DNA of 64,000 nt from Streptomyces sp. R44 (GTDB lineage: Bacteria; Actinomycetota; Actinomycetes; Streptomycetales; Streptomycetaceae). Shown one piece after another: positions 51,047-53,319 of the stretch. The position numbers and the translations under genes are program-made. The stretch spans positions 6,728,501-6,792,500 of the forward strand of contig NZ_CP163444.1 in assembly GCF_041053105.1 (NCBI RefSeq), written 5' to 3'. Below the pieces are notes generated by a model. That model did no database searches. It saw only the letters and a list, made by a program, of their open reading frames with translations, and was not told the DNA's origin. Within the stretch, counting starts at the first letter, position 1; each line of letters begins with the position of its first letter.

Positions 51047-51145
51047 TTCCAAGTTCACCAGTGGGGTGATTGTCGCTCTTGTGGTCTGGCGACTCCCGGG
51101 GTTCACCGTGAGGATGCCCGCCGTAACGGTGAACGGGGGAGCGGC

Positions 51146-52897
51146 GTGAAGCAAGGTCGGGGTTCGGGCGTGCGGGAGCGTTCCGAAGAGGGGGAGCCCG
51201 ACGGGCCGGCGGTGCCGGCGCAGGCAGGTTCAGGGGCACCGGCCGAGGAGCACCTCAGGGGGGTCGATCCGTCCGAGTCCGAGGTGACCCGGCTGCTCTG
51301 CCAAGCGCTCCACGCGCGTCCCGACCGGGTGCGGGCCGTCAAGGCATGGTGGGTGAAGGTTCGAGGCCGGGGTGAGAAGCAGGCCAAGCCCCGTCGCAGT
51401 AGTCGACGGCGCATCTACCTGGAGGGCGGGGACGACTGCCCGCCCCTGGGCGAGCCCATGGCGCAATGGGTACTGGACCATGTGCTGCACGGGCCACGGC
51501 TGCCGGTACCGTCCTACGGCTTCGACGCCATGCCGGTTCTCGCGCACAGTCTGCGAGCGAGACGGCGACGACGGGTGCGACGTATCGCGGTGCTTGTACT
51601 GGTGGTTTCCGTGGCGTGCGCGGTGCCCCGACCTGCCGCCGTCTGGGGGCTGGCTCTCCTCGTCGCGCTCGTCATGTGGTGGGCCGCTCTGCGAGCGGCC
51701 CGGAACGGGAAAAGGTCGAGGCTCGCGCGGTCGCCTCGCGTGGCGTATTTCGTGTTGTCCGTTCCGCTGCTCTGCGCTCTGGTCCCTTGGAAAGCATCGG
51801 GCTCGGTGATCTCCATGCGCGCCGGGATTCTCCTCTTGCCGGTGGCCTGGTTGGCGGCGGCCGCGCTCGCTTGCACGGTGGACCGGATGGCGGCCCGGGC
51901 CGCGATGGCCCGGACCGTTCGGAACGGCGCGGCGACCGACTGCCTTCCCTGGTCTGCTGTCAGGGCGAGGCGACGGGCCGCGTCGCTCGAAGAGGGTCAG
52001 GCCAGGAAGGAATTGCCCTACGACCAACCTGAGCGCTTCGTGGGGGCCGGGCGGGACGTGTGGGGCGTGGCTGACATCAGTATTCCGCTGAAACACAAGG
52101 ACCCGCTCGGACGGATCGAGCTCTCCGGCGAGACCGAGCTGCTCGACCGAGTGGGTGCCGCACTCGACGAACTGGGCGGATCCGGGGACATCACCGATCC
52201 GCTGCCCGGCTTCTCTGTCGCGCAGGTACTGGGCCTTCCGTCGGCTCTGTGGCTGCAGCGCATCGGTGCCCCGAAGGTCACGCTCCCGGACCTTCGGGGC
52301 CGGGGCCGTCGCTCGCCTTCCAGCGTGCCGGACCGGCTGTACCTGCGGGCGCAGTGCGTCAGCTGGGCCGGTCAGATCGTGGTCAATGTGTTCGTCCACG
52401 CGGCCCTGGAGGCCGGAGAACTGCGGCTCACCGTGCGGCCGCACGTGATGACACCTCTCTACAACGAACTGCGGGTGGCCGACGCACCCTTGTCCAAGAG
52501 GGGAGTGCGACTCCTCGGCTGGGTGGCTCTGCAGGGGTTGCTGGACGCGGCCGGAGGGCCGTTCGCGCTCTTCCGGTTCGTGAGGCGCCTCGCGCTGCGC
52601 GAGCCGGGCGTGGCGCGCACCGAGGAGAAGGATCCGGTGAGCCTCCGCGACCGCTACTCCATGGAGGAGATCACGGACATGCACCAGAGCGACGACGCGA
52701 AGAGGCACGTCGTGCTGATGCAGACGTGCATCTTCCGCTCGGTCGCCGCCTACCTCGAAGAACTGGGAATCGATACCGCCCGATATCACGAGCAGGTGGC
52801 GATGGTCATCACCAACATCCAGGTCTACGGCGACAACAACGCGCCGATCCAGAACGTTGCAGGTAGCGGCATCAGCCAGGTAGGTCAGGAAAACTAG
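51146..52897 (+). CDS. Four-helix membrane protein with C-terminal RHIM/amyloid-signalling-like motif
   Basis: 583 aa, GTG start after GGGGGAG. No known enzyme domain is recognised. Residues 1-140 are polar with a basic patch (RGRGEKQAKPRRSSRRR). Four membrane helices lie at about 146-160, 164-183, 198-214 and 225-244, and residues 260-555 form a soluble domain. The last 20 residues contain NNAPIQNVAGSGISQVG. A closely similar motif (IAPVQNVVGQNISNV) opens the protein encoded 18 bases downstream. This pseudo-palindromic Q-N-V-x-G pattern recalls RHIM and bacterial amyloid signalling motifs that assemble partner proteins through cross-beta fibrils. Base composition is slightly less GC-biased than its neighbours. 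Confidence 0.7.
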   Translation: MKQGRGSGVRERSEEGEPDGPAVPAQAGSGAPAEEHLRGVDPSESEVTRLLCQALHARPDRVRAVKAWWVKVRGRGEKQAKPRRSSRRRIYLEGGDDCPPLGEPMAQWVLDHVLHGPRLPVPSYGFDAMPVLAHSLRARRRRRVRRIAVLVLVVSVACAVPRPAAVWGLALLVALVMWWAALRAARNGKRSRLARSPRVAYFVLSVPLLCALVPWKASGSVISMRAGILLLPVAWLAAAALACTVDRMAARAAMARTVRNGAATDCLPWSAVRARRRAASLEEGQARKELPYDQPERFVGAGRDVWGVADISIPLKHKDPLGRIELSGETELLDRVGAALDELGGSGDITDPLPGFSVAQVLGLPSALWLQRIGAPKVTLPDLRGRGRRSPSSVPDRLYLRAQCVSWAGQIVVNVFVHAALEAGELRLTVRPHVMTPLYNELRVADAPLSKRGVRLLGWVALQGLLDAAGGPFALFRFVRRLALREPGVARTEEKDPVSLRDRYSMEEITDMHQSDDAKRHVVLMQTCIFRSVAAYLEELGIDTARYHEQVAMVITNIQVYGDNNAPIQNVAGSGISQVGQEN

Positions 52898-52914
52898 TGG
52901 TCAGGAGTGTACGG

Positions 52915-53319
52915 ATGATCGTGGGACGTCGTCGCCAGGAGCCCGAAGCGGGGCACGGCTCGGGGATCTCCATCGGGGGCAGCAACATCGCTCCGGTGCA
53001 GAACGTCGTAGGGCAGAACATCTCGAACGTCCACCAGTCCGCCGCGATCGAGGGCAGCGCTGTCGTCGACCGCGCAACCGTGCGCGAGCTCCTGGAAGGC
53101 TTGCGCGCCGATGTGGAGCGCCATGAGGCGGAACTGCCGAACGTGTCGCTGATCCGCGGCGTGGTGGACTCGATCGACACCGCGCTCGTAGCCCCTGACG
53201 TGCGAGAGACAGGGGCGCTGACCGGTGTCGCGCACGCGCTGCCGGCCCTGGTGGCGGGAACCGCGGTACAGCAGGCGGGAGAGGCGCTTGCCCAGGCCAT
53301 CGCGGGATGGGCGGGGTGA
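52915..53319 (+). CDS. Small protein with N-terminal RHIM/amyloid-signalling-like motif
   Basis: 134 aa from the ATG at 52915 (GGAG 8 bases upstream); a GTG at 52897 overlapping the upstream stop is an alternative. Residues 14-42 (GSGISIGGSNIAPVQ, NVVGQNISNVHQS) repeat the C-terminal motif of the preceding protein. The remaining 90 residues are helical: DRATVRELLEGLRADVERHEAEL, LIRGVVDSIDTALVAP, and a hydrophobic C-terminal helix (GVAHALPALVAGTAVQQAGEA). The pair fits a sensor or effector and adaptor that meet through the shared motif; which is which is unknown. Confidence 0.7.
   Translation: MIVGRRRQEPEAGHGSGISIGGSNIAPVQNVVGQNISNVHQSAAIEGSAVVDRATVRELLEGLRADVERHEAELPNVSLIRGVVDSIDTALVAPDVRETGALTGVAHALPALVAGTAVQQAGEALAQAIAGWAG

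What the first reader, a model, noticed from the sequence alone, without database searches (positions are those of the whole stretch)
51146..53319. Two-gene module with a shared RHIM/amyloid-signalling-like motif
A 583-aa four-helix membrane protein ends with NNAPIQNVAGSGISQVG, and the small protein encoded immediately downstream begins with GSNIAPVQNVVGQNISNV. One motif is at a C-terminus and the other at an N-terminus, the classic arrangement of amyloid-signalling partners in NLR-type and RHIM systems. The membrane protein may be an effector or sensor of a defence or cell-death pathway. Neither protein has a recognised domain. I see no NLR or known effector, so this may be an undescribed pair.
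Basis: partly seen in the sequence, partly recalled or inferred. Interest (0 to 1): 0.82.

Follow-up and report, generated by a model that had tools for sequence, protein, structure and literature searches.

The report
Motif-matched membrane sensor and effector pair
Two neighbouring Streptomyces genes make a membrane protein and a small partner that carry the same short sequence tag, and in relatives the tag changes in both partners together and the partner is sometimes a known type of cell-suicide enzyme, which points to an undescribed family of bacterial alarm switches.

Summary
The shared motif is real. Membrane protein A (51146-52897) ends with TNIQVYGDNNAPIQNVAGSGISQVGQ; the next gene, B (52915-53319), begins with SGISIGGSNIAPVQNVVGQNISNVHQ (score 64; 0 of 5000 shuffles reach it). 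Three database proteins are natural A-B fusions with both motifs. A belongs to a large unnamed family of membrane proteins. In 105 of 111 pairs examined, A's tail matches the N-terminus of the next gene; 0 of 154 control neighbours do. The motif differs between loci (roughly 14-23 classes by clustering method; 7 at the loosest) but matches within the locus, so both partners change together. In 10 loci the partner carries a TIR-like domain instead of the small helical bundle; all 9 that could be tested match the CAP12/Pycsar TIR family. Best reading: a receptor-effector cassette coupled by a homotypic, probably amyloid-like motif, used in defence or cell death. The RHIM label is not supported by sequence, no NLR is involved, and the motif polarity is the reverse of described NLR systems. 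Amyloid formation and function are inferred, not shown. An unrelated beta-helix protein with the same design lies elsewhere in this genome.

The parts
51146..52897 (+). Gene A: 583-aa membrane protein with cytosolic domain and C-terminal motif (stop codon included)
   Evidence: GTG start with GGGGAG at 51136-51141 read directly
51584..51880 (+). Four transmembrane helices of A; preceded by an Arg-rich stretch, so N- and C-termini are probably cytosolic
   Evidence: hydropathy peaks; model helices 120-151, 153-178, 190-204, 211-252; topology is inference
51959..52828 (+). Conserved cytosolic alpha/beta domain plus C-terminal helices of A (P0001 residues 264-553); weak START/PR10-like resemblance
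52811..52888 (+). C-terminal motif of A, TNIQVYGDNNAPIQNVAGSGISQVGQ (P0001 residues 548-573)
   Evidence: residues 559-575 below pLDDT 50
52915..53319 (+). Gene B: 134-aa partner (alternative upstream GTG at 52897); AGGAG at 52903-52907
52960..53037 (+). N-terminal motif of B, SGISIGGSNIAPVQNVVGQNISNVHQ (residues 16-41)
   Evidence: residues 1-35 and 38-48 below pLDDT 50
53071..53313 (+). Four-helix bundle of B (residues 53-133), distantly related to DUF5955-type bundles by profile comparison

Best explanation
The pair is a two-gene signalling cassette. A is a membrane-anchored receptor (four TM helices, conserved cytosolic domain) whose flexible C-terminal tail carries a homotypic motif; B is the response protein, carrying the same motif at its N-terminus in front of a small helical bundle. 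On activation, A's tails are clustered or exposed and recruit and template B's motif into a shared beta-rich, probably amyloid-like assembly, which brings B's bundles together and switches on its action, probably at the membrane. Relatives use a TIR NADase-type domain in the same slot. The likely purpose is defence or controlled cell death; motif identity would keep parallel cassettes separate. SHOWN by sequence: matched motifs, conservation, joint replacement, a TIR domain in the partner's place in relatives, variable genomic location. INFERRED: direct motif-motif binding, amyloid state, B as effector, trigger, cell-death outcome.
For: Homologues: 104 of A (only the 7992 best candidates were scored) and 106 of B. 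Fusions P0102-P0104 hold both motifs. Of 111 A-next-gene pairs (110 fetched loci plus the window; fusion loci L028, L029 set aside), 105 score >=45; of 154 control adjacent pairs 0 do, max 40; the 105 have 103 distinct partner bodies. Among 32 representatives (<60% identity) cognate mean is 71.1 against 29.9 non-cognate; the cognate partner ranks first for 23 and in the top three for 27; 0 of 20000 permutations reach the observed sum. A motifs score on average a median of 24.7 against other loci's A tails, i.e. background (28 representatives). Motif classes: 14 at the middle setting of single linkage (7 and 17 at the others), 17-23 by average or complete linkage. TIR-like partner in 10 loci; PF10137 at 74.8-100.9 bits, cut-off 24.7, in 9 of 9 tested. 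Their A proteins are homologous to the window's A: hhalign 98.1%, E 8e-14, 291 columns, six sequences. Motifs of 28 representatives are rich in N/Q/G (37.7% against 13.2%) and poor in charge and Leu. Same codon at identical motif residues in 930 of 1526, expected 796. Matched pairs outside the order: L141, L147. Type-1 flanks differ.
Confidence: 0.6

Rival explanations
1. Stoichiometric docking: the two motifs pair as a short beta-zipper that tethers B to A one to one (scaffold, chaperone or regulatory subunit), with no amyloid and no polymer.
For: Matched motifs and joint replacement would arise from any specific homotypic interface; fusions of A and B fit a constant complex.
Against: A hetero-interface need not be made of near-identical sequences on both sides; the median 52% identity between partners over 28 representatives and the N/Q/G-rich composition suit self-like stacking better. 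Both motifs are mostly of very low model confidence, though no partner was present in the models.
Confidence: 0.25
2. The cassette is not defence but a housekeeping or developmental membrane module (for example envelope stress or differentiation), B being a regulator.
For: The A-like fold family is nearly universal in the order: 284 of 293 genomes have a match, including a motif-less paralogue in front of a channel-like gene in this genome (L138). I did not identify a defence gene around the window pair (neighbours were not systematically annotated).
Against: The motif-bearing pairs are patchy: full-length matches to the type-1/type-2 partner profile (E < 1e-40) in 4 of 61 related genomes. Type-1 pairs lie in different places: of 171 pairs among 19 loci, 1 shares the upstream and 8 the downstream flank. 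TIR domains occupy the partner's place in 10 loci.
Confidence: 0.2
3. True RHIM/BASS3 family member.
For: Resemblance by eye of IQV-YGDNN and ISIGGNN to the tetrad followed by GDNN (recalled for mammalian RHIM; Frankia peptide GVQVGDGN in PMC8086366, section 13).
Against: No RHIM model among the Pfam matches; tetrad broken in both copies; not clearly above shuffles.
Confidence: 0.1
4. Concerted evolution by recombination: the tail and the head of adjacent genes are kept alike by gene conversion, without functional meaning.
For: The genes are adjacent; codons at identical residues agree somewhat more often than expected (930 of 1526 against 796).
Against: Most of the codon agreement is what codon usage alone predicts; window 8 of 13 against 7.3 expected. 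The match is found in 105 of 111 pairs and 0 of 154 control neighbours, and again with an unrelated beta-helix protein.
Confidence: 0.05

Closest known systems
BASS (bacterial amyloid signalling sequence) signalosomes, NLR plus Bell-domain protein
   Same: About 25-residue motif shared by products of adjacent or overlapping genes, several unrelated motif families, small helical-bundle partner, occasional TIR partner (PMC7889193, passages; PMC12261475, introduction)
   Different: No NLR: the upstream protein is a membrane protein with a cytosolic domain. Polarity is reversed (C-terminus of the receptor-like protein, N-terminus of the partner). No clear similarity to the two BASS3-type peptides tested
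RHIM systems (RIPK1/RIPK3) and fungal PP motif
   Same: Short homotypic motif outside folded domains
   Different: Tetrad not intact; no sequence support
CAP12/Pycsar TIR effectors (PF10137)
   Same: Nine tested partners of relatives carry this domain behind the N-terminal motif
   Different: Known members (recalled) are triggered by cyclic nucleotides through other domains; here a motif stands in that place. The window's B has no TIR
EACC1 two-gene membrane conflict system (Kaur et al. 2020, PMC7159879)
   Same: Actinobacterial two-gene membrane-associated system
   Different: EACC1 is a single-TM domain with a partner that often has a caspase domain (passages); here four TM helices and no caspase; only a sub-threshold EACC1 hit in one type-2 partner (E 0.0066)
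DUF5955 (PF19380)
   Same: Family of the small partner in some relatives (68.6 bits in L100, cut-off 27.1)
   Different: Window B itself has no direct hit; link only by profile comparison (97.1%)

Membership tests
RHIM (PF12721) | Profile match / I-V-Q-V-I-G type tetrad | tested here: not met
   No RHIM model among Pfam matches at E<=10 for A (0 matches) or B (one sub-threshold match, DNA_ligase_OB); A has IQVYG, B has ISIG. Tetrad and accession recalled
BASS signalosome | Short motif shared by products of adjacent genes | tested here: met
BASS signalosome | One partner is an NLR with the motif at its N-terminus | tested here: not met
   A has no Pfam domain, no NTPase, and carries the motif at its C-terminus
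BASS signalosome | Sequence membership in BASS1-10 | tested here: inconclusive
   Only two published BASS3-type peptides were compared; the family profiles were not available
BASS signalosome | Amyloid formation of the motif | not testable with these tools
   needs peptides
Bell domain | Small helical bundle with hydrophobic helix, membrane-targeting | tested here: inconclusive
   B is a predicted four-helix bundle; highest 19-residue hydropathy 1.44 at residue 100; no Bell profile available
CAP12/Pycsar TIR effector (relatives' partner) | PF10137 above cut-off | tested here: met
   9 of 9 tested partners, 74.8-100.9 bits; L110 not tested (masked); not the window's B
EACC1 two-gene system | EACC1 domain plus caspase-type partner | tested here: not met
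   Neither model among the matches of A or B
START/PR10-like fold of A | Helix-grip fold match | tested here: inconclusive
DUF5955 (B bundle) | PF19380 above cut-off | tested here: not met
   No hit for window B; a related bundle, L100, hits at 68.6 bits, others sub-threshold; profile link

The most novel reading that the evidence does not exclude
Streptomyces and some other actinobacteria use a large, undescribed class of NLR-free signalosomes: a membrane receptor family whose flexible C-terminal tail is one of many mutually insulated self-templating motifs, each wired to its neighbour's N-terminal copy, with the effector slot filled either by a helical bundle or by a TIR NADase-type domain, and with the receptor slot itself exchangeable (beta-helix version in the same genome). 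One genome would run parallel, non-cross-seeding amyloid alarm lines.
Probability: 0.5. Interest if true: 0.92.

Novelty: new variant of a known kind. Interest (0 to 1): 0.82.

Why it matters
Bacterial amyloid signalling has been described around NLRs. A family with a membrane receptor, reversed motif polarity and 14 or more motif classes among 105 matched pairs would extend it to a new receptor type. It would also give ready material for the open question of how short amyloid motifs achieve specificity: within each locus the two copies match, between classes they do not, so cross-seeding rules can be tested directly. The TIR-bearing members offer an enzymatic read-out.

Tried and rejected
Rejected: RHIM/BASS3 membership by sequence. 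EACC1 membership. Chance or compositional origin of the motif match. Gene conversion as the main cause. The own-genome hit L002 lies in a frame antisense to an aldo/keto reductase-like frame and was dropped as chance.

Led nowhere: PDB fold searches of B (generic four-helix bundles); A's cytosolic domain resembles START/PR10 folds only weakly; PADLOC for the window proteins (one relative's bundle partner, L104, gave a weak candidate-defence match, E 1.6e-4); PLSDB plasmid and phage records; paper searches for this cassette or DUF5955. For L132 an 85-codon frame about 1.3 kb further on aligns at 55 with A's tail, but not recognisably over the motif, and I did not count it. L038, L083 and L117 look matched by eye but score under 45 and are counted as misses. 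Single linkage puts the window's class at 38 members, but 13 of these (L123-L131, L133-L136) are visibly different motifs chained in; 25 A tails hold APIQ.

Rows dropped: four truncated or frame-shifted A homologues (P0042, P0094, P0098, P0100); loci L001, L003, L046-L054 and L057; fusion loci L028 and L029 from the pair counts; L110 from the codon test. One search looked at 124 loci: 114 had an A frame, 112 gave a candidate partner. The partner taken was the best-scoring downstream candidate; the control used the same rule. The 40 weaker loci were chosen by me from the listing, not at random.

Full report
OBSERVATION. The window lies in an 8.89-Mb single-contig genome whose close homologues, where named, are mainly Streptomyces. 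The shared motif aligns over 26 residues, TNIQVYGDNNAPIQNVAGSGISQVGQ against SGISIGGSNIAPVQNVVGQNISNVHQ, score 64; 5000 shuffles give mean 24.9, sd 4.7, max 57.

THE PAIR ITSELF. A protein search found 104 A homologues (only the 7992 best candidates were scored) and 106 B homologues; sources call them mostly hypothetical or uncharacterised (exceptions: P0104 'Integral membrane protein', P0136 'EF-hand domain-containing'; one A homologue, P0101, is filed under Mycobacterium tuberculosis). In B the motif is the most conserved stretch (lowest-entropy 25-residue windows start at residues 12-19); in A the GDNNAPIQ core is nearly invariant among 100 homologues. AlphaFold models give A long helices in the membrane part, an alpha/beta cytosolic domain and C-terminal helices (mean pLDDT 78.4), with residues 559-575 below 50, which covers the later two thirds of the motif. 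B is a four-helix bundle with residues 1-35 and 38-48 below 50. Three database proteins (P0102-P0104) are A-B fusions that keep both motifs, separated by a linker; L028 and L029 encode similar fusions, of which I saw the ends only. Type-1 pairs sit in different places: of 171 pairs among 19 loci, 1 shares the upstream and 8 the downstream flank.

JOINT CHANGE OF THE MOTIF. A scan of reference genomes gave 42 loci, including divergent A proteins at about 30% identity. Their tails end in a different motif (for example NFISGDNNQVNTGNMGGGMQQ), and the gene behind begins with the matching variant (NVTGSGNQVNTGRVGGDMRQV). Searching relatives with the partner profile found two further, more remote A proteins with two further matched motifs, L059 and L065. 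A profile from these two matched 284 of 293 genomes of the order; this counts the whole fold family, including a motif-less paralogue (L138 in this genome), not cassettes. I took the 30 loci returned by that call and 40 weaker ones chosen from its listing.

STATISTICS. Of 124 loci examined, 114 had an A frame and 112 a downstream candidate. Leaving out the two fusions and adding the window gives 111 pairs: 105 score >=45 and 90 score >=60 between A's last 70 and the partner's first 80 residues. The same procedure on 154 other adjacent gene pairs gave none >=45, maximum 40. The 105 have 103 distinct partner bodies. With 32 representatives (<60% identity in the domain before the tail), cognate pairs average 71.1, non-cognate 29.9; the cognate partner ranks first for 23 of 32 and in the top three for 27; no permutation of 20000 reaches the observed sum. 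For 28 representatives scoring >=45, an A motif scores on average a median of 24.7 against other A tails, which is background, so most tails share no recognisable sequence yet match their own partner. Against this stands that several representatives share a class: the cognate score beats the best other A tail in 17 of 28, the best other partner head in 16, and both in 13. The number of classes depends on the method: single linkage 7, 14 or 17 by threshold, average or complete linkage 17 to 23. The window's own class holds 25 of the 105 by the APIQ core; single linkage chains 13 further, visibly different ones to it. Failures: L038, L083, L117 score under 45 though they look matched; L097, L122, L132 have no convincing partner. 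Of 1526 identical motif residues, 930 use the same codon in both genes against 796 expected from codon usage, so conversion may contribute a little but does not explain the match. The genes are close: in 106 of 110 loci the start taken lies within 50 bases of, or before, A's stop, and in 47 they overlap by 4.

EFFECTOR SWAP. In 10 loci (L105-L111, L114, L118, L119) the partner is 230-290 aa and carries, behind the motif, a TIR-like domain. Pfam PF10137, 'CAP12/Pycsar effector protein, TIR domain', hits 9 of 9 tested at 74.8-100.9 bits (cut-off 24.7); part of L110 is masked in the source, so it was not tested. Three were also scanned against PADLOC and match a candidate defence family (PDC-S35), two of them weakly a TIR effector model. 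The A proteins of six of these loci are homologous to the window's A (hhalign 98.1%, E 8e-14 over 291 columns). The other partners are small proteins; one tested matches DUF5955 outright (L100, 68.6 bits) and several sub-threshold, some not (L113, L125); the window's B relates to such bundles by profile (97.1%, E 7e-11).

BREADTH. Of 296 genomes drawn across the phylum, 12 have a match at E<=1e-6, nine in this genus and three outside it; some of the nine are motif-less paralogues only. L141 and L147, outside the order, again show matched tails and heads (76 and 74); for L145 none was found, and L151 was not resolved. The type-1/type-2 partner profile matched 10 of 61 related genomes at E<=0.01, but only 4 with full-length matches below 1e-40 (G000, G007, G032 type 1; G010 type 2). 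In this genome the deep A profile finds clearly only the window's A and the motif-less L138. A second design exists here: a right-handed beta-helix protein (PF13229) ending in GPVFHRDVHGAQFAWNNDHVTQNQQ, followed by a small protein beginning GPVFNHGVSHSQFAWNNETVTQNQQ. That small protein occurs in 7 of 61 genomes and the matched motif in 5 of those 7 loci, own included.

MECHANISM. Shown: matched motifs, conservation, joint replacement, a TIR domain in the partner's place in relatives. Inferred: A senses something at the membrane or through its cytosolic domain, its tails cluster, and they template B's head into a beta-rich, amyloid-like stack that activates B. The composition of the motifs in 28 representatives (N 10.6% against 1.5% elsewhere, G 20.2 against 8.4, Leu 1.2 against 12.1, charged 9.0 against 24.7) fits signalling amyloids but proves nothing. 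Defence or cell death is inferred from TIR partners and patchy occurrence.

COMPARISON. [quoted passage not shown] a 2025 paper repeats the N-NLR/C-effector rule (PMC12261475, introduction; section 3.3). Here the receptor is not an NLR and the polarity is reversed. The RHIM label fails: no RHIM match and no clear similarity to two BASS3-type peptides (sequences from PMC8086366 section 13). The EACC1 two-gene system was compared from passages of PMC7159879 and PMC8195603. I found no description of this cassette in the held library; the key 2020 paper on BASS motifs (doi 10.1016/j.jmb.2020.10.004) was seen only as a reference, so overlap with its tables cannot be excluded.

VERDICT. A real, conserved, motif-matched pair, member of a large family of such pairs that I could not find described; function by inference.

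Noticed in passing
L053:2489-4596 (own genome, G000:C1 about 2859988-2862095): Second motif-matched pair of unrelated ancestry: beta-helix protein plus small bundle-like protein, overlapping by 4 bases; matched motif in 5 of 7 loci found.
   Followed up: partly
L138 (own genome, G000:C1:1719680-1720528): Paralogue of A's cytosolic domain without the motif, with a channel-like frame (TVGYGD) downstream; L154 has a similar motif-less tail, and other hits end at the same profile position.
   Followed up: partly
L054 (own genome, about G000:C1:6820696): Stand-alone DUF5955 protein (129.8 bits) without an obvious motif, in front of a 922-codon frame with a LuxR-like C-terminus by eye.
   Followed up: no
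L105-L111, L114, L118, L119: CAP12/Pycsar-type TIR proteins with an N-terminal matched motif; seen here behind A-family genes because that is how they were sought. Whether they occur elsewhere was not tested.
   Followed up: partly
P0101: A-family protein filed under Mycobacterium tuberculosis (one 85-kb contig); possibly a mislabelled or contaminated record.
   Followed up: no
P0026: A homologue whose source name says it is on a plasmid of Streptomyces sp. WAC07094, although PLSDB gave no match.
   Followed up: no
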